Below are positions 180 to 11,312 of a DNA stretch of 64,000 nucleotides, one piece after another. Under the pieces are notes generated by a model that saw nothing but the letters and a program-made list of their open reading frames with translations, made no database searches and was not told where the DNA came from. This DNA comes from an uncultured Ignavibacteria bacterium (GTDB taxonomy: Bacteria > Bacteroidota > Ignavibacteria > SZUA-365), in the NCBI GenBank assembly GCA_913061095.1, contig CAJXVM010000013.1, forward strand, positions 1 to 64,000. The letters are read 5' to 3'. The position numbers were made by a program, and so were the translations under genes. Every line of letters starts with the position of its first letter. Position 1 is the stretch's first letter.

Positions 180-252
180 ACAATGTATTCGCCCTGAAGG
201 GGCGATATGATTCAGCCCTGGGCTGAAGCGTTGCGCCCTTTCAGGGCGCTTC
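180..252. repeat. REP-like palindromic element
   Basis: Three nested palindromes in order: CGCCCTGAAGGGGCG (190-204), TTCAGCCCTGGGCTGAA (211-227) and CGCCCTTTCAGGGCG (234-248). The same arrangement occurs twice at 7998-8200 at the start of the TonB receptor gene. It lies between the partial gene at the left edge and the 3' end of the glycosidase gene. The remaining bases of 52-280 hold no gene that I can support. Confidence 0.7.
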
Positions 253-4022: not shown

Positions 4023-4127
4023 TCACAGGAATGTGTGTGAGGTGCCCTGGGCGGCCGCGCGGCCGGCGATCCCCGCCGCAAACAGAATGAATAGAAGTGC
4101 AAGGACAGGTGTTCGCAGCCTGGTCAT
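4023..4127 (-). CDS. 34-residue secretory leader ORF
   Basis: The ATG at 4127 has a strong GGAGGAGG Shine-Dalgarno sequence about 6 nt upstream. It encodes a peptide that is nearly all signal sequence, with hydrophobic core LALLFILFAAGIAG and a possible AAA cleavage site, then stops after GTSHTFL. It could be a truncated exported gene whose mature part was lost, a leader peptide affecting the lipoprotein gene 11 bp downstream, or a genuine small protein. The ribosome-binding site argues that it is translated. Confidence 0.5.
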   Translation of the reverse strand: MTRLRTPVLALLFILFAAGIAGRAAAQGTSHTFL

Positions 4128-4264
4128 GATATCGCCTCCTCCAACAGTACACGATGACGGCAGCCCGTGCGACGGATCACATCTCCGCCACCCCGGTTGT
4201 GGGATATGAACGGAGATTAATGACTTTTTATGACAAATTCCAGTGGGTGGGATGGAGTGCGCTC

Positions 4265-4300
4265 GGCCAACCCCACGCTCACGCGTGGGGCTACCGCTTC
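4265..4300. repeat. Palindromic repeat CCCCACGC-N4-GCGTGGGG
   Basis: Perfect 8-bp arms at 4271-4278 and 4283-4290, followed by CTACCGC. A near copy (24880-24899) lies inside the signal region of the FnIII lipoprotein gene. It sits in the intergenic region before the BatA-like gene. Confidence 0.6.
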
Positions 4301-4364
4301 CTGCCTTGTTTCGCAGGTATCGTCCCGATAAATTGCACGGTTTGATCACGCATGAACGGACGGT

Positions 4365-6497
4365 ATGCAATTTCTCAATCCGCTGTACCTGATCGCACTC
4401 GCCGCCGCGGCGATTCCCATCATCCTGCATCTGCTGAACCTGCGCAGAACGCGGGTGATCGAGTTCAGCACGCTGAGCTTTCTCAAGGAGCTGCAGAAAA
4501 GCCGCATCCGCAAACTGAAGCTCAAGCAGTGGCTGCTGCTCGCCCTGCGCACGCTGATCATCATCTTCGTGGTGCTCGCGTTTACGCGTCCCGCGCTGCG
4601 CACGGGCTTCGGCTTCCTGCCCGGCACTTCGGCGAAAACCTCGGCCGTGATCGTGCTGGACAATTCGTTCAGCATGCTGACGTCGGATGAACACGGACAG
4701 CTGCTCAAGCAGGCGCGGCAAAAGGCGACGGAGCTGGTGGACCTGATGGAGGCCGGCGACGAGGCGGCCCTGGTGCTGACGACCGCGCCGGATGAAAACG
4801 TCGATTTCACCGCCGCGCTCAACGCGCTGCGCGGCGAGATCGAAGACGTGCAGCCATCCTACGCGCACGGCGATTACCGGCAGGCGCTCACCGCGGCCGG
4901 CGCCCTGCTCGCGCAGAGCGACAATTTCAACAAGGAAGTCTATATCCTCACCGACCGGCAGCGCTCGCAGTACGTCTCGGATAACGACGCCCGGCAGCCG
5001 CTGTTCGGCGCCGGTGTGCGCGTGTTCGTGCTCCCCGTCGGCGACGGCGACCAGGGAAATACCGCCGTCGTGGAGGCCGAAACCCGCAACGCGATTTTCG
5101 AACGCGACAAGCCGGTCGACGTCGGCGCCACGGTGCGCAACCTCTCGTCGAACGCCCTCGGCGGATCCATCGTCTCGGTGTTCCTCGGCGGCGAACGCGT
5201 CGCGCAGCAGACCGTGGATGTGGAAGCCGGCGGCTTCGAACAGGTGAATTTCACCGTCGTGCCCAAACGCGCGGGATGGATAGACGGCTTCGTGGAGCTG
5301 GAAGACGACCGCCTGCCCGAAGACAACCGCCGCTATTTCGGATTCTACATCCCCGAACAGCTGAACGTGCTGCTCGGTCCGACCGGCGGACGCGACGCCC
5401 GCCTCCTCTCGCTGGCGCTGAATCCCGCCGCCGCCGATCCGGACGTGCCGCAGAGCTTCCGCATCGACGCGGCGGACCGCGGCGCGCTGCTCTCGGCGAA
5501 TCTCTCGCGCTACGACGTGGTCGTGCTCACCGGCGCCGAAGGTCTCTCCGACGCGTTCATCCAGCGCCTCGCATCCTGGGTGCGCGACGGCGGACGCGTC
5601 ATGCTCTTCCCCGACGCCGACGGCGATATCGACGCGTGGTCGACCGTCCTTCTCCCGCAACTCGGCATCCCCGCCCCGGCGGGCACCACCGGCTCGCTCG
5701 CGGAGGGATCCTCCTTCGTCAGCTTCGGCGAGGTGGATTTCGATCACCCGCTGTTCGCAAACATTTTCGCGCAGACCGACATGCAGGACGAACCCGAGAT
5801 CGAGTCCCCACGCCTGTATCACAGCGTGCGCCTGCGCGGCGACGAACGTGCCCGGCAGGTGATCTCCACGCGCGCGGGCGATGCCTTCCTGCTCGACGCG
5901 CGCGTCGATGACGGACGCGCGCTGGTCTTCGGCGTCTCGCCCGATCTCGCCTGGTCGGATTTTCCGATGAAAGGGATTTTCGTCCCTCTCGTCAACCGCG
6001 GGATGTTCTACCTGGCCGCGCGGGACGACAACGCCCTCGCGCTGACCGTCGGGGAAAACACCGAGATCACCATCCCCAAGACCGTTCCCGGCGACGACCT
6101 CTTCGAGCTGCGCGGACCCGAGGGCACCGTGCAGCGCATCGTGCCCAAGACCCTGCCGTCGGGACTCGTGTTTCCGGTGGAGTCGCCGTCCGCTCCCGGC
6201 GTGTACACGCTCGCCACCGGCGACCGCGTGCTGCGCAGCATCGCGGTGAACACCGATCCGGTGGAATCCGATCTCGCGCGCGCGGATGCGGAGCTGCGCG
6301 AGCAGTTTTTCGCGCGCCTGGGCATCGCGAACATCGCTGAACTCGGCGCGGATGTGAACGTGCAGCAGGCGGTGGCGCAGGTGCGCTACGGCGTGGAGCT
6401 GTGGAAGTACATGCTCGGGCTGGCGCTGCTCTGCGCGCTGCTGGAAATGCTCGTGGCGCGGGATGTGAAGCGCGAGGAGATTAATATTGAAGGATAA
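4365..6497 (+). CDS. BatA-like membrane protein with VWA domain
   Basis: 710 residues. The N-terminus (FLNPLYLIALAAAAIPIILH, then a second segment at about 56-74) is the double-transmembrane domain of the BatA/TIGR02226 family. A von Willebrand A domain follows, with the metal-site motif DNSFS at 99-103. A large periplasmic region with a glutamine-amidotransferase-like segment (SRYDVVVLTGAEGLSD) comes next, and a last transmembrane helix lies near 675-693. In this family such proteins are usually next to MoxR ATPase and DUF58 genes; none is visible here. Likely role: inner-membrane protein of envelope assembly or stress functions. Confidence 0.85.
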   Translation: MQFLNPLYLIALAAAAIPIILHLLNLRRTRVIEFSTLSFLKELQKSRIRKLKLKQWLLLALRTLIIIFVVLAFTRPALRTGFGFLPGTSAKTSAVIVLDNSFSMLTSDEHGQLLKQARQKATELVDLMEAGDEAALVLTTAPDENVDFTAALNALRGEIEDVQPSYAHGDYRQALTAAGALLAQSDNFNKEVYILTDRQRSQYVSDNDARQPLFGAGVRVFVLPVGDGDQGNTAVVEAETRNAIFERDKPVDVGATVRNLSSNALGGSIVSVFLGGERVAQQTVDVEAGGFEQVNFTVVPKRAGWIDGFVELEDDRLPEDNRRYFGFYIPEQLNVLLGPTGGRDARLLSLALNPAAADPDVPQSFRIDAADRGALLSANLSRYDVVVLTGAEGLSDAFIQRLASWVRDGGRVMLFPDADGDIDAWSTVLLPQLGIPAPAGTTGSLAEGSSFVSFGEVDFDHPLFANIFAQTDMQDEPEIESPRLYHSVRLRGDERARQVISTRAGDAFLLDARVDDGRALVFGVSPDLAWSDFPMKGIFVPLVNRGMFYLAARDDNALALTVGENTEITIPKTVPGDDLFELRGPEGTVQRIVPKTLPSGLVFPVESPSAPGVYTLATGDRVLRSIAVNTDPVESDLARADAELREQFFARLGIANIAELGADVNVQQAVAQVRYGVELWKYMLGLALLCALLEMLVARDVKREEINIEG

Positions 6498-6587
6498 GTC
6501 TTGGGGGCGCGAAGGCACGAAGACGTGAAGACACGAAGAAATAATTTGAACAGCGAAGGAAGCGAAGGGACGAAGGATATTTCGAAT
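6498..6587. repeat. GAAG-rich degenerate repeat before hflX
   Basis: The leader between the BatA-like gene and hflX is built of imperfect CGAAG/ACGAAGA units (gcgaaggcacgaagacgt and following). It could be read in frame from a TTG at 6501, but this would add low-complexity residues upstream of the natural HflX start, so I treat it as non-coding repeat. Confidence 0.45.
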
Positions 6588-7961
6588 ATGACCGAAGAAC
6601 GAGAAAACCATGTTCCCTACTCCGAGGAGCCAGTTGATGCCGGGGAGACGGAGGAGAAGCGCGCGTATGTGAAGCCGTCGGAGCGGATGTTCGAGACGGA
6701 GAAGGATGTCGAGCGCGTGATCCTGATGGGCGTGTCGCGTCCCCCGTCGCAGATGCGCTACGAGACCGATGAGCATCTCGACGAGCTGGAGCTGCTGGCG
6801 GAGACGGCCGGCGCGGAGGTGGTGGAGAAGGTCTTCCAGAACCGCTCGGCCATCAAGGTGACGACGTTCATCGGCAAGGGCAAGGCGGAATACCTGGCCG
6901 AACGCTGCGAGGATCTCAACGTGCAGACGGTGATTTTCGACGACGACCTCTCGCCGGTGCAGCAGCGCAACCTCGAGCGCGCGCTCAACCGCAAGGTCAT
7001 CGACCGCACGTCGCTCATTCTCGACATCTTCGCGATGCACGCGCGCACCAACGCCGCGAAAACGCAGGTGGAGCTGGCGCAGCTCGAGTACCTGCTGCCG
7101 CGCCTGACGCGCATGTGGACGCATCTCTCGAAACAGTACGGCGGCATCGGCACCAAGGGTCCGGGCGAAACCCAGATCGAAACCGACCGCCGCATCGTGC
7201 GCGACCGCATCGCGCATCTGAAATCGAAACTCGCGCGCATCGACCGGCAGCGCGAGACGCAGCGCAAGGGACGGCAGGACATCACGCGCGTCTCGCTGGT
7301 GGGATACACGAACGTGGGAAAATCCACGCTCCTGAACATGCTCACCGGCGCGGATGTGCTGGTGGAGAACAAGCTCTTCGCGACGCTGGACTCCACCGTG
7401 CGCTCGGTGGATGTCGAGGGACACGACGTGCTGTTCTCCGACACGGTCGGCTTCATCCGCAAACTGCCCACGCGCCTGGTGGCCTCGTTCAAGAGCACGC
7501 TCGACGAGGTCGTGGAGGCCGACATCATCCTGCACGTGGTGGATGTATCGCATCCGCATTTCAAGGAGCAGATCGACGTCGTACGCGACACGCTCCGCGA
7601 GCTGGGCGCGCAGGACAAGCCCACCATCATGGTGTTCAACAAGATCGACCGGCTGGAAAACACGGGCAGCATGGCGGGATTGAAGGAAGAGTATCCTTAC
7701 GCCGTCTTCATCTCCGCCGCGCGCGGGATGAATATCGGACAGCTGCGTACCGCCGTGCTCATGCTGCTCGAGGAGCAGCACCGGGAGAAGGAATACGAGA
7801 TTCGTCCGCCGGACTTCGCGCTCAGCGCCGAATTCCACCGCCTCGGTCGCATCATCGAGGAGAAGTACGAAGAAGATCACATCCGCATCCGCTGCGTGCT
7901 TCCTCCCGACACCGAACAGCGCCTCCTCAAGCAGCATGCGGATAAACTGCGGGTGGTATAA
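6588..7961 (+). CDS. hflX: GTPase HflX
   Basis: 457 residues from the ATG at 6588. The N-terminal HflX domain carries FIGKGKAEYLAE and VIFDDDLSPVQQRNLE; a glycine-rich linker YGGIGTKGPGETQIETDRR follows. The G domain has G1 GYTNVGKST (about 239), G3 DTVGFIRKLP and G4 NKID. HflX binds the 50S subunit and splits stalled or stressed ribosomes. A Tyr-rich acidic C-terminal extension is present, as in many family members. The upstream TTG reading was rejected because it only translates a repeat. Confidence 0.95.
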   Translation: MTEERENHVPYSEEPVDAGETEEKRAYVKPSERMFETEKDVERVILMGVSRPPSQMRYETDEHLDELELLAETAGAEVVEKVFQNRSAIKVTTFIGKGKAEYLAERCEDLNVQTVIFDDDLSPVQQRNLERALNRKVIDRTSLILDIFAMHARTNAAKTQVELAQLEYLLPRLTRMWTHLSKQYGGIGTKGPGETQIETDRRIVRDRIAHLKSKLARIDRQRETQRKGRQDITRVSLVGYTNVGKSTLLNMLTGADVLVENKLFATLDSTVRSVDVEGHDVLFSDTVGFIRKLPTRLVASFKSTLDEVVEADIILHVVDVSHPHFKEQIDVVRDTLRELGAQDKPTIMVFNKIDRLENTGSMAGLKEEYPYAVFISAARGMNIGQLRTAVLMLLEEQHREKEYEIRPPDFALSAEFHRLGRIIEEKYEEDHIRIRCVLPPDTEQRLLKQHADKLRVV

Positions 7962-7973
7962 CAGGGAGTGGCT

Positions 7974-10478
7974 ATGCAGCGGATTGTTCGGATTCTTCGC
8001 CCTGAAAGGGCGACATGTCTCAGCCCCAGACGAAGTCCGGGGTTCCGGGCGACGCACCCACCCCCTCCTCTTCGTCCTGAAAGGACGACACAATTGCGAT
8101 TAATCCTGTGTCGCCCTTTCAGGGCGAATATATTTCGTTGGTTGTCGCGCTCATTCCCGGGGCTTCGCCCCGGGCTGAGACGTACCGCCCTTTCAGGGCG
8201 GTCCATCCAATCCACCCATTTCCTGCTCGTGCTCGTGCTCCTGCTCGTGCTCGCCAAAGGCGCCAGCGCGCAGGGCGTCATTTCCGGCACCGTCCAGGAG
8301 GCCGGCTCCGGCGAAGCGGTGATCGGGGCGAACGTCGTGCTGGACGGCACGGGCAAGGGCGCGGCGACGAACCGCTACGGCTACTTCGCCATTGCGGGAC
8401 TCCAGCCCGCCACATACACGCTGCGCATCAGTGCTGTGGGATACCGCACTTACACAAAGGATATTCGCGTCGCGAATTCCGATGAAATCCGTCTCGACGT
8501 GGATCTCGAGGAGTCGGTGATCGAGCTTGGCGCGGTGTCCATCGAAGCCGACCGCGAAGAGTCCACCGCGCGCCGCGTCTCCGCGGTGGATCTTCCCGTC
8601 GAGCAGATCCTGCGCCTGCCGTCGCTCGGCGGGGAAGTGGACATCTTCCGCGCGCTGCAGCTGCTGCCGGGCGTGCAGGAAAGCTCGGAGATCTCCAGCG
8701 GCCTGTACATCCGCGGCGGGAGTCCCGATCAGAACCTCGTGCTTCTCGACCGCATGGTGCTGTACAATCCCTCGCACCTCGGCGGCTTCCTCTCCACGTT
8801 CAACGCCGACGCCATCAACAACGTCACGCTCATCAAGGGCGCCATGCCGGCCGAGTACGGCGGACGCCTCTCCTCGGTCGTCGACGTGACCATGCGCGAG
8901 GGCGGACGCGACCGTATCCGCGGGGCGGGCGGCATCAGCATGATCGATTCGCGGCTGACGATCGATGGTCCGATAAACGACGACGTCACCTTCATGATCT
9001 CAGGCCGCCGCGTGTACCTCGACTGGCTGGTGGACCTGATGTCCGACGAAGGATCGCTCAATTACTACTTCTACGACCTCGTCGCCAAGACCAACATCCG
9101 GCTCGGGGAGAACGACCGGCTGTTCTTCTCCGGCTTTTTCGGGCGCGACGTGATGGGCGAGCCCTTCGATGACGACGACGAATTCAACATCTCGTGGGGC
9201 AACAGCGCCGGCAACCTGCGCTGGACGCACATCTTCGGCAGCAAGCTCTTCACCAGCGTCTCCGCCGTGGTGAGCGACTACCGCTTCAGCTCCGAGATCG
9301 AGGAGTGGGATGAGTCCCGCTTCAAAACCGTCTCCGGCATCCTCGACTACTCACTGCGCGGCGAAGCGGAGTACTTTCATTCCGCCGAACACACATTCAA
9401 GGCCGGACTCGAATCCACCATCCACACCTTCACCTCGGAGGCGTCATCCAACCAGGGCGAGTTCGAGGAGTTCGATCCGCATCTGCCCACGCATCGCGGC
9501 ACCGAGCTGTCGCTGTTCCTGCAGGACGAGTGGACCGTGAATGAGCGCCTGCGCCTGCAGCTCGGCGGACGCGGGTTCTATTTCGACCGCGGCAACTACC
9601 TGCGCTTCGAGCCGCGGCTCGCGGGTTTTTACACGCTCGACAACGAGATCACGCTCAAGGCCGCATTCATCGGCGCGAATCAGTTCCTGCATCTCGTCAC
9701 GCGCAACGACATTTCTCTGCCGACGGACATGTGGTTTCCCTCCACCGCTTCGCTGCCGCCGTCCTACGCCCTGCAGTACGTGCTCGGCGCCAGCCGGGAT
9801 TTCCATGACGGCATGTACAGCGTTTCGCTGGAGGGGTATTACAAGACCATGAACAACCTGCTGGAGTTCCGCGACAACGCGTACTTCTCGATTTTCGCGC
9901 CGCTGGAGCGCGAGCTGACCGGCGGCGACGGACGCGGCTACGGCGTGGAGTTGTTCGTGCAGAAGCGCAAGGGCAGCTTCACCGGCTGGCTGGGATACAC
10001 GCTCGCCTGGACCGACCGCACCTTCCCGGAGCTGAACGGCGGCAAGCGCTTCCCGCCGCGGTACGACCGGCGGCACGACATTTCGCTCGTGCTCAACTAC
10101 CGTCTCAGCGACCGCTGGGAGTTCACCGGCGTCTGGGTGTACGGCACGGGACAGGCCTTCACCTTTCCCGTCGCGCAGTATCAGCTCGACGTGAACGATC
10201 CGGTGAAATTTCTTTACAGCGACCGAAACGGGTACCGGCTTCCGTCGTATCACCGCCTGGATCTGAATTTCAGCTACGCGTTCAACTGGTTCGGGTGGGA
10301 CTGGAAGGCCAGCATCAACCTGTACAACACGTACAATCACATGAATCCCTTTGCCCAGTACCTCGACTCCGACTGGAACTGGGATCCGGTCACCGGCCAG
10401 GAGACGCGCACGCTCAAGCTCAAGCAGATCACGCTCTTCCCGCTGCTCCCGACCTTCGGGCTCAGCTTCACGTTCTGA
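7974..10478 (+). CDS. TonB-dependent outer-membrane receptor with N-terminal carboxypeptidase-like domain
   Basis: 834 residues if started at the ATG at 7974, which has AGGGAG 5 nt upstream. The order is: an Arg/Pro-rich N-terminus of about 80 residues encoded by palindromic repeats, a signal core (FLLVLVLLLVLAKGASAQ), a CarboxypepD_reg-like beta-sandwich (SGTVQEAGSGEAVIGANV), a plug (LYIRGGSPDQNLVLLD... VTLIKGAMPAEYGGRLSSVVDV) and a 22-strand-type barrel ending in F-S-F-T-F. It is followed 3 bp later by a DUF4249 lipoprotein, the usual Bacteroidota pairing. The substrate is unknown. The odd N-terminus suggests repeat insertion into the signal region; the effective start may lie further in. 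Confidence 0.85.
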   Translation: MQRIVRILRPERATCLSPRRSPGFRATHPPPPLRPERTTQLRLILCRPFRANIFRWLSRSFPGLRPGLRRTALSGRSIQSTHFLLVLVLLLVLAKGASAQGVISGTVQEAGSGEAVIGANVVLDGTGKGAATNRYGYFAIAGLQPATYTLRISAVGYRTYTKDIRVANSDEIRLDVDLEESVIELGAVSIEADREESTARRVSAVDLPVEQILRLPSLGGEVDIFRALQLLPGVQESSEISSGLYIRGGSPDQNLVLLDRMVLYNPSHLGGFLSTFNADAINNVTLIKGAMPAEYGGRLSSVVDVTMREGGRDRIRGAGGISMIDSRLTIDGPINDDVTFMISGRRVYLDWLVDLMSDEGSLNYYFYDLVAKTNIRLGENDRLFFSGFFGRDVMGEPFDDDDEFNISWGNSAGNLRWTHIFGSKLFTSVSAVVSDYRFSSEIEEWDESRFKTVSGILDYSLRGEAEYFHSAEHTFKAGLESTIHTFTSEASSNQGEFEEFDPHLPTHRGTELSLFLQDEWTVNERLRLQLGGRGFYFDRGNYLRFEPRLAGFYTLDNEITLKAAFIGANQFLHLVTRNDISLPTDMWFPSTASLPPSYALQYVLGASRDFHDGMYSVSLEGYYKTMNNLLEFRDNAYFSIFAPLERELTGGDGRGYGVELFVQKRKGSFTGWLGYTLAWTDRTFPELNGGKRFPPRYDRRHDISLVLNYRLSDRWEFTGVWVYGTGQAFTFPVAQYQLDVNDPVKFLYSDRNGYRLPSYHRLDLNFSYAFNWFGWDWKASINLYNTYNHMNPFAQYLDSDWNWDPVTGQETRTLKLKQITLFPLLPTFGLSFTF
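7998..8200. repeat. Two REP-like palindrome units inside the receptor's 5' coding region
   Basis: Palindromes CGCCCTGAAAGGGCG (7998-8012), CGTCCTGAAAGGACG (8073-8087), CGCCCTTTCAGGGCG (8112-8126 and 8186-8200), with a GC hairpin CCCGGGGC/GCCCCGGG near 8157-8174. The layout matches the element at 180-252. The reading frame of the TonB receptor stays open through all of it. Confidence 0.75.
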
Positions 10479-10481
10479 GAT

Positions 10482-11312
10482 ATGAAGAAAGCACTACTAT
10501 ATATACCGCTGCTCATCCTGCTCGCCTCGTGTGAAAACGAGGTGGATGGTCCCGCCTGGCCCGACCACGATCCGAAGCTCGTCGTCACGGCGAACATCCG
10601 CGTCGAGGGGGATTCCGTGCAGGTCTTCTGCCGCGTCTCCCGCACGATGGCGCTGAACGAGGAGTTCCGCATCGACCGCGCCATGGTCAACGACGCGGTC
10701 GTTGAGATCCACCACGACGGTGAGATCCACAACATCCCCTACCGCACGGGTTATTATCCCTACGATTTCGATGTGAATTATGCGGGATTCCTGCCCAGGG
10801 GCAGCTCCGGCCGCTACGAGCTGGTGGTGCGCAAGGATGCCATGACCGCGCGCTCGGTGCTGGAAGTGCCGGAGCTTCCGTTGACATTTGATCAATTCAA
10901 AGTACAGTGGTACGATCCGTCCAATCGGGAAAGCAATGTATACTACCGGCTCTCCACACCACAGAACAGGATCCGCTACGACTTGATCGTGGAAGGTTAT
11001 TACAGTGGTCCCGGTGGGGGTTGGTACGTGATTCCCTTTGGAGGGAGACCCCTTATTGAGGCAAGCTATGCCGCCTACACTGAGGGGACGTTCAGACTAG
11101 GGTATTCTCATCCGGAGCAGGAGCGCATGCGCTATATTCTGACTGCCATCAGTCCGCAATACACCGCATTCCAGGACTCCCGCTGGTGGTCGGGCTACTC
11201 CGGTTCCCCGTTCGAGCCCGAGGAGCAGAATCCCGCGTTTAACGTCGGCGGCGACGGCATCGGCTTTTTCTGGTGGGAGCTGGTCGGCGAGCCGGTGGAG
11301 TTCTCCTACTGA
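10482..11312 (+). CDS. DUF4249 lipoprotein, partner of the TonB receptor
   Basis: 276 residues. Signal peptide with a good lipobox (LLLASC, Cys at 17), then a beta-rich domain with PKLVVTANI... GDSVQVFCRVSRT typical of DUF4249 proteins. It starts 3 bp after the receptor's stop codon, so the two are an operon. In Bacteroidota, DUF4249 genes are commonly paired with TonB receptors in this order; the lipoprotein presumably sits in the outer membrane next to the barrel. The ligand is unknown. Confidence 0.8.
   Translation: MKKALLYIPLLILLASCENEVDGPAWPDHDPKLVVTANIRVEGDSVQVFCRVSRTMALNEEFRIDRAMVNDAVVEIHHDGEIHNIPYRTGYYPYDFDVNYAGFLPRGSSGRYELVVRKDAMTARSVLEVPELPLTFDQFKVQWYDPSNRESNVYYRLSTPQNRIRYDLIVEGYYSGPGGGWYVIPFGGRPLIEASYAAYTEGTFRLGYSHPEQERMRYILTAISPQYTAFQDSRWWSGYSGSPFEPEEQNPAFNVGGDGIGFFWWELVGEPVEFSY

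What the first reader, a model, noticed from the sequence alone, without database searches (positions are those of the whole stretch)
7974..8290. REP-like palindromes form part of a TonB receptor's N-terminus
Between an ATG with a good Shine-Dalgarno sequence (7974) and the hydrophobic signal core (about 8220) the frame runs through four CGCCCT...AGGGCG palindromes in two units. The same element occurs between genes at 180-252. The extra Arg/Pro-rich n-region of about 80 residues is unlike any normal signal peptide. Either the cell tolerates it, a cryptic internal start is used, or the receptor is poorly exported. A dispersed repeat kept in frame in a signal region is uncommon and recalls the palindromic elements found in Rickettsia proteins.
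Basis: partly seen in the sequence, partly recalled or inferred. Interest (0 to 1): 0.68.

Follow-up and report, generated by a model that had tools for sequence, protein, structure and literature searches.

The report
Mobile palindrome inside receptor signal peptide
A small mobile palindromic DNA repeat has landed in frame in the export signal of an outer-membrane receptor gene, so the gene now appears to begin with about 70 repeat-encoded codons; this is a clear new case of a known kind of event, and the repeat, catalogued as a small RNA, looks here like mobile DNA tied to a family of transposases.

Summary
The reading frame from ATG 7974 to the receptor's hydrophobic signal core (8220) runs through a 207-bp inverted doublet (7996-8202). 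It has two units, each with three palindromes, and folds as one hairpin (-127 kcal/mol, z = -12). Two of its parts reach the Rfam cut-off for RF01687, 'Acido-Lenti-1 RNA'. Orthologues have ordinary 20-28-residue signal peptides and lack the insert. In one same-genus genome the start codon, with an upstream GGAG, sits at the matching place at the end of hflX. The simplest history is insertion just behind the old start codon, leaving start and signal core on opposite sides. The receptor body is under purifying selection (dN/dS 0.10), but the insert has non-coding codon usage. No ATG, and no start with a ribosome site as good, lies between insert and signal core.

In relatives, RF01687 copies flank Y1 transposase genes (9 genes, 6 genomes; about 0.1-0.3 expected) whose motifs fit TnpA subclass 1.2, reported to lack such repeats. 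So the 'sRNA' behaves here as a REP-like mobile repeat. Of 122 copies surveyed by crude gene calling, 105 were intergenic, and only this one separates an evident start from its protein. Precedents exist (RPE, RU-2, intragenic REPs). Translation and export remain untested.

The parts
6501..7961 (+). upstream gene hflX (GTPase)
   Evidence: Pfam GTP-bdg_N, GTP-bdg_M, MMR_HSR1; also lies directly upstream of the orthologous receptor in L012, L011, L014, L015, L018
7964..7968 (+). Shine-Dalgarno GGGAG, 5 nt before ATG 7974
   Evidence: sequence; duplex energy -7.7 kcal/mol
7974..10478 (+). TonB-dependent receptor reading frame from ATG (834 aa), with the repeat near its 5' end
   Evidence: ORF; CarbopepD_reg_2, Plug, TonB_dep_Rec_b-barrel
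7974..7997 (+). codons MQRIVRIL, most likely the start of the ancestral signal peptide (first codons firm; codons next to the insert could belong to it)
   Evidence: compare MTRLLVRL (G001), MNRLAVLV (G006), MHRLVVFA (G009), MHRLVLLV (G011)
7996..8202 (+). inserted REP doublet: two three-palindrome units in opposite orientation, 207 bp = 69 codons; right end may reach about 8213
   Evidence: absent from orthologues
7998..8042 (-). RF01687 (Acido-Lenti-1) copy 1, palindromes 7998-8012 and 8024-8042
   Evidence: 37.9 bits, cut-off 37
8073..8087 (.). third palindrome of unit 1, CGTCCTGAAAGGACG (both arms changed)
8112..8126 (.). third palindrome of unit 2, CGCCCTTTCAGGGCG
8156..8200 (+). RF01687 copy 2, palindromes 8156-8174 and 8186-8200
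   Evidence: 41.4 bits, cut-off 37
8220..8270 (+). signal-peptide hydrophobic core and c-region FLLVLVLLLVLAKGASA, predicted cut before QG
   Evidence: hydropathy maximum 3.8; aligns with signal peptides of orthologues; cut site inferred
190..248 (.). intergenic copy of the same element
10482..11312 (+). downstream DUF4249 lipoprotein-like gene, apparently the same operon
   Evidence: PF14054, E = 1.7e-6, 28.2 bits against a cut-off of 28.5

Best explanation
A non-autonomous REP-like mobile element of the RF01687 type inserted as an inverted doublet into the 5' end of the receptor gene, just behind its original start codon. Shown: the element, its absence from orthologues, the open frame, and the tie of the same repeat type to Y1 transposase genes in relatives. 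Inferred: the insertion point lies inside the signal peptide. Also inferred: translation still starts at ATG 7974 and reads through 69 repeat codons, giving an 82-residue Arg/Pro-rich n-region before an intact hydrophobic core and signal-peptidase site. The extension would be cut off with the signal peptide, so the mature receptor would be unchanged; the price would be slower or lower expression from the large hairpin in the mRNA. It is a tolerated selfish insertion, not a domesticated domain.
For: The element is RF01687 above cut-off, twice and in opposite orientation, and is dispersed in the genome. Orthologues have normal signal peptides and no insert. In the same-genus genome G001 the receptor ATG overlaps the hflX stop, with GGAG upstream at nearly the same offset as in the window. 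No ATG occurs between 7974 and the signal core; the TTG, GTG, CTG and ATC codons there have poorer SD energies than 7974 (-5.3 to 0 against -7.7). The insert has non-coding codon usage (-0.55 per codon, body 0.41, sd 0.06 for windows of equal length), as expected of acquired DNA. The frame used is the only one of three without stops, and 207 is divisible by three. The body is under purifying selection: dN/dS 0.10 against G004, and 5 nonsynonymous to 29 synonymous changes on the window's branch. Mobility: RF01687 lies within 300 bp of 9 Y1 transposase genes in 6 genomes, and G029 has GCCCTGAAAGGGCG, as in the window, beside such a gene.
Against: No protein or RNA data. The genome has no RF01687-flanked transposase of its own. 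Selection on the body may pre-date the insertion. Many starts in this clade have weak SDs, so a strong SD is not decisive. The nearest relative, G004, also has repeats here and its start is unresolved, so the exact pre-insertion sequence is not known. GTG 8229 and ATC 8205 remain possible starts. The exact right edge of the insert is uncertain.
Confidence: 0.6

Rival explanations
1. The insert is in effect extragenic: it lies in the leader, and translation starts behind it at a cryptic start (ATC 8205 behind AGGGCGG, giving MQSTHFLLVLVLLLVLAKGASA, or GTG 8229).
For: Published caution that most N-terminal REPs are extragenic because true starts lie downstream (PMC3733652). In this clade RF01687 copies are mostly intergenic and several lie just upstream of start codons (105 of 122 copies intergenic). 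Codon usage of the insert is non-coding.
Against: No ATG in the stretch. AUC is a very poor start (general knowledge), and its computed SD energy is only -3.1 kcal/mol. GTG 8229 has no SD and leaves a 14-residue signal peptide without an n-region. A good ATG with an SD sits upstream where G001 has its start.
Confidence: 0.2
2. The receptor is silenced: the 207-nt hairpin stalls translation or is cut by RNase III, so the gene is a recent, still intact pseudogene, tolerated because the genome has many TonB-receptor paralogues.
For: Hairpin of -127 kcal/mol, z = -12.3. Twenty-four receptor matches in this genome. The predicted fold of a longer stretch also pairs the SD region with sequence behind the insert.
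Against: The body is intact, with few nonsynonymous changes on this branch; the frame happens to be preserved. A recent event would look the same, so this is weak evidence.
Confidence: 0.17
3. The RF01687 stretch is a functional small RNA or riboregulator controlling the receptor, as the Rfam entry type (sRNA) would suggest.
For: Rfam lists it as Gene; sRNA and it was proposed as an RNA motif (PMC2864571).
Against: Copies occur in both orientations, as inverted doublets and arrays, and flank transposase genes. Copy number varies from 0 to 30 among relatives, and it is missing at most orthologues.
Confidence: 0.03

Closest known systems
Intragenic REPs (Di Nocera et al. 2013, PMC3733652)
   Same: short palindromic repeats, often dimers in opposite orientation, inside coding frames; more at the N- than the C-terminal end; clusters encode up to 82 residues
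   Different: those are GTAG- and CGTC-tagged families; the paper regards most N-terminal cases as probably extragenic, whereas here the evident start lies upstream of the repeat
Enterobacterial RU-2 in YPO1552 (Delihas 2007, PMC2759123)
   Different: there the repeat supplies residues 1-30 of a short exported protein; here it splits the signal peptide of a conserved outer-membrane receptor
Rickettsia palindromic elements (RPE)
   Same: palindromic element inserted in frame in unrelated genes and tolerated (review PMC10969869)
   Different: a family of about 150 bp inserted in frame often; here one case among 122 copies, and another repeat family
REPINs/BIMEs and RAYT (TnpA-REP) systems
   Same: inverted doublet of palindromes, dispersed, non-autonomous, beside an HUH/Y1 transposase gene in some relatives
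   Different: no GTAG foot; double rather than single palindrome per unit; associated transposases fit TnpA subclass 1.2 (DH[IVL]H, WQ, Y---Q--HH), not the REP class 2 (Corneloup et al. 2018, PMC6006769)
RF01687 Acido-Lenti-1 RNA
   Same: sequence and structure match above cut-off
   Different: behaves here as mobile DNA in both orientations, not as a single-strand RNA gene

Membership tests
RF01687 (Acido-Lenti-1) | covariance-model score above the gathering cut-off | tested here: met
   41.4 and 37.9 bits against 37
RF01687 (Acido-Lenti-1) | transcribed as a small RNA | not testable with these tools
   no RNA data; arrangement argues for mobile DNA
REP/REPIN-type mobile palindrome | dispersed multi-copy palindromes, mostly intergenic | tested here: met
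   about 15 places in the genome; 105 of 122 surveyed copies intergenic (crude gene calling)
REP/REPIN-type mobile palindrome | inverted doublet forming one hairpin | tested here: met
   -127.1 kcal/mol, z = -12.3; opposite-strand pairs also common in G027
REP/REPIN-type mobile palindrome | GTAG or CGTC foot | tested here: not met
   no such tetranucleotide seen at the foot of the hairpins in the G000 copies (by eye)
REP/REPIN-type mobile palindrome | cognate Y1/HUH transposase gene flanked by the repeat | tested here: inconclusive
   met in relatives G024, G005, G029, G036, G038, G028; not in the window's own genome
TnpA Y1 subclass 1.2 (the associated transposases) | DH[IV]H, WQ and Y---Q--HH motifs, about 150 aa | tested here: met
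   present in most flanked proteins, with small departures such as DHLH and WS in G005C46; PDB matches are IS200/IS605 transposases
TnpA Y1 subclass 1.2 (the associated transposases) | no flanking REP (as published) | tested here: not met
   17 of 24 such genes have flanking inverted repeats at p < 0.02
Rickettsia palindromic element | sequence membership in an RPE family | not tested
   only likeness of outcome claimed; no RPE sequences were compared
In-frame mobile-element protein extension | orthologues lack the segment | tested here: met
   G001, G002, G006, G008, G009, G010, G011
In-frame mobile-element protein extension | segment is translated | not testable with these tools
   no proteomics or ribosome profiling

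The most novel reading that the evidence does not exclude
The doublet acts as a reversible switch. A Y1 transposase acting in trans could excise it precisely as single-stranded DNA. Because 207 bp is 69 codons, the receptor would stay in frame with or without it, so cells could alternate between a short-signal, well expressed receptor and a long-signal, hairpin-damped one. More widely, RF01687 would be the mobile repeat of TnpA subclass 1.2, which thus has REP-like systems of its own.
Probability: 0.05. Interest if true: 0.75.

Novelty: new member of a known kind. Interest (0 to 1): 0.43.

Why it matters
It is an unusually clean case of a mobile palindrome inside a signal peptide, because the likely original start and the hydrophobic core lie on opposite sides of it. 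It makes testable whether a cell tolerates an 82-residue n-region and a hairpin of about 100 bp in an early coding region. The side result may matter more: an Rfam 'small RNA' family (RF01687) behaves in this class of Bacteroidota as a REP-like repeat of a transposase subclass thought to lack such repeats, so automated annotation of it as sRNA is probably misleading here.

Tried and rejected
1) That the own genome's Y1 transposases mobilise this repeat: L039 and L040 are flanked by other palindromes, L041 by none of these types. 2) That complementarity of the flanks outside the doublet marks a larger element: p = 0.30 by shuffling. The right flank shares GGATTGGAT with the copy at C26:50844, so the right edge may reach about 8213. 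3) That the nearest relative G004 has the same insertion: it has another palindrome array behind hflX, a contig break, and then two GTAG-type repeats before the signal core. An ATG there is one base out of frame, so it cannot be read either way. 4) Other in-frame cases among 122 RF01687 copies in 14 genomes: 17 overlap a called ORF, two of them the window's. The 11 others read through have a possible start codon behind the repeat or look spurious; the remaining four lie at an ORF edge (crude gene calling). By the bare criterion 'a GTG follows' the window would also have one (8229), so its distinction rests on signal-peptide anatomy and SD. 6) No second strain was found, so no polymorphism test.

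Full report
WHAT IS THERE. The window is contig 13 of a 4.6-Mb genome. Its nearest public relatives are titled uncultured Bacteroidetes and Ignavibacteria bacteria. Position 7974 is an ATG 12 nt behind the hflX stop and 5 nt behind GGGAG. The frame is open to 10478 and encodes a CarbopepD_reg_2, Plug and TonB beta-barrel receptor. Between the ATG and the hydrophobic core at 8220 lie 82 residues with 18 Arg and 11 Pro. They come from palindromes at 7998-8012, 8024-8042, 8073-8087, 8112-8126, 8156-8174 and 8186-8200. These form two units of three palindromes in opposite orientation around 8093-8106. The 207 nt fold as one hairpin, -127.1 kcal/mol, z = -12.3, no shuffle as good. The 15-mer palindrome with at most one mismatch occurs 20 times in the genome, against 0 for the reversed control.

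WHAT THE REPEAT IS. Rfam places 8156-8200 (+) and 7998-8042 (-) in RF01687, Acido-Lenti-1, above its cut-off. The family was proposed as a candidate RNA from Acidobacteria and Lentisphaerae (PMC2864571). Among 41 genomes of the class, copies range from 0 to 30, often as opposite-strand pairs less than 200 bp apart, as in the window. Comparing the coordinates, nine Y1 transposase genes in six genomes have RF01687 within 300 bp, several on both sides in inverted orientation (G024:C11, G024:C15, G038:C23). My arithmetic from the numbers of genes, copies and bases gives about 0.1-0.3 expected. A separate Rfam scan of four of these loci finds the copies again. The G029:C1 transposase is flanked by GCCCTGAAAGGGCG, identical to the window's outer palindrome less one base. 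The flanked transposases cluster on a tree (3 changes of label against 7.1 shuffled, 0 of 500 shuffles as low). They carry DH[IVL]H, mostly WQ, and Y---Q--HH, the signature of TnpA subclass 1.2, described as lacking REPs (PMC6006769). Here 17 of 24 such genes have significant flanking inverted repeats. RF01687 therefore acts in this group as a REP-like mobile repeat. The window's genome has no RF01687-flanked transposase, so its copies are non-autonomous or relics.

WHERE IT SITS. Orthologues of the receptor with the same hflX neighbour have ordinary signal peptides: MTRLLVRLFFFALLLFPASAFSQG (G001), MKFSALILFLLFPALLAAQG (G002), MNRLAVLVVSFLLPASCLLLPAIARAQG (G006), MHRLVVFAVFLLLPASCLLLPAITSAQG (G009), MLRFVFIIVLTLLPAFLRSQG (G010), MHRLVLLVAFFLLPAICVLHPALSHAQG (G011). 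In G001 the ATG overlaps the hflX stop and has GGAG upstream at almost the window's offset. In the window MQRIVRIL lies before the insert and FLLVLVLLLVLAKGASAQG after it. The simplest history is an insertion behind the old start codon, inside the signal peptide. The outer codons next to the insert may belong to it: the right flank shares GGATTGGAT with another copy. In G011 an RF01687 copy lies in the same spacer but before the ATG. In G004 other repeats fill the spacer. The hflX-receptor junction is thus a place where repeats collect.

IS IT TRANSLATED? Not shown. For: 7974 is the only ATG, with the best SD energy of all candidates (-7.7 kcal/mol); the frame used is the only stop-free one and the insert length is a multiple of three; and the receptor body shows dN/dS 0.10 with few nonsynonymous changes on this branch. 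Against: codon usage in the insert is non-coding (-0.55 per codon against 0.41 in the body), which fits recent acquisition as well as non-translation; the hairpin could stall ribosomes or invite RNase III; and GTG 8229 and ATC 8205 remain possible starts. By chance alone, an element with one open frame of three and a length divisible by three would keep a gene open in about one insertion in three to one in nine, so no selection need be invoked.

HOW UNUSUAL. I surveyed 122 copies in 14 genomes with a simple codon model. 105 are intergenic and 17 overlap a called frame, two of these being the window's. Among those read through, none but the window's separates an evident start from the rest of a conserved protein. 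This is crude gene calling and a lower bound. Precedents: intragenic and N-terminal REPs, with the warning that most N-terminal ones are extragenic (PMC3733652); [quoted passage not shown] RPE in Rickettsia (PMC10969869). Very long signal sequences are reported for autotransporters (PMC2805444 abstract), so a long n-region need not abolish export.

VERDICT.

Noticed in passing
L097/L216 (G024:C11), L219 (G024:C15), L112/L215 (G024:C4), L095 (G036:C44), L288 (G029:C1), L238 (G005:C46), L267 (G038:C23): Rfam 'sRNA' RF01687 flanks Y1 transposase genes with TnpA subclass 1.2 motifs, often on both sides in inverted orientation; the subclass was published as lacking REPs.
   Followed up: partly
L119 (G004:C68) and L010 (G004:C80:1-110): In the nearest relative the same hflX-receptor junction holds an array of other double palindromes, a contig break, then two GTAG-type REPs directly before the signal core; the ATG there is one base out of frame, so slip, assembly error or an upstream start cannot be told apart.
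   Followed up: partly
L039 (G000:C16) and L040 (G000:C8): Two Y1 transposases of the window's own genome sit in arrays of their own palindrome families (CCACACCCTCACGGGTGTGG; CCGCCGCAGGCGG with CCCGGACGCATGTCCGGG), unlike the RF01687 repeat.
   Followed up: partly
L043 (G000:C4:64645-66252): An RF01687 doublet ends directly before the probable GTG start of an SbcD-like nuclease; the longest-ORF reading would wrongly include it.
   Followed up: no
L014 and L018 signal peptides: Signal peptides of several orthologues are built from near-tandem CCTGCT-type codons (LLPASCLLLPA), which may make signal-peptide length prone to slippage; the window has a similar TCCTGCTCGTGCTCG duplication at 8221-8253.
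   Followed up: no
window 4023-8093, minus strand: A mechanical 1356-codon ORF runs antisense to several genes and begins inside the repeat; probably an artefact of high GC content.
   Followed up: no
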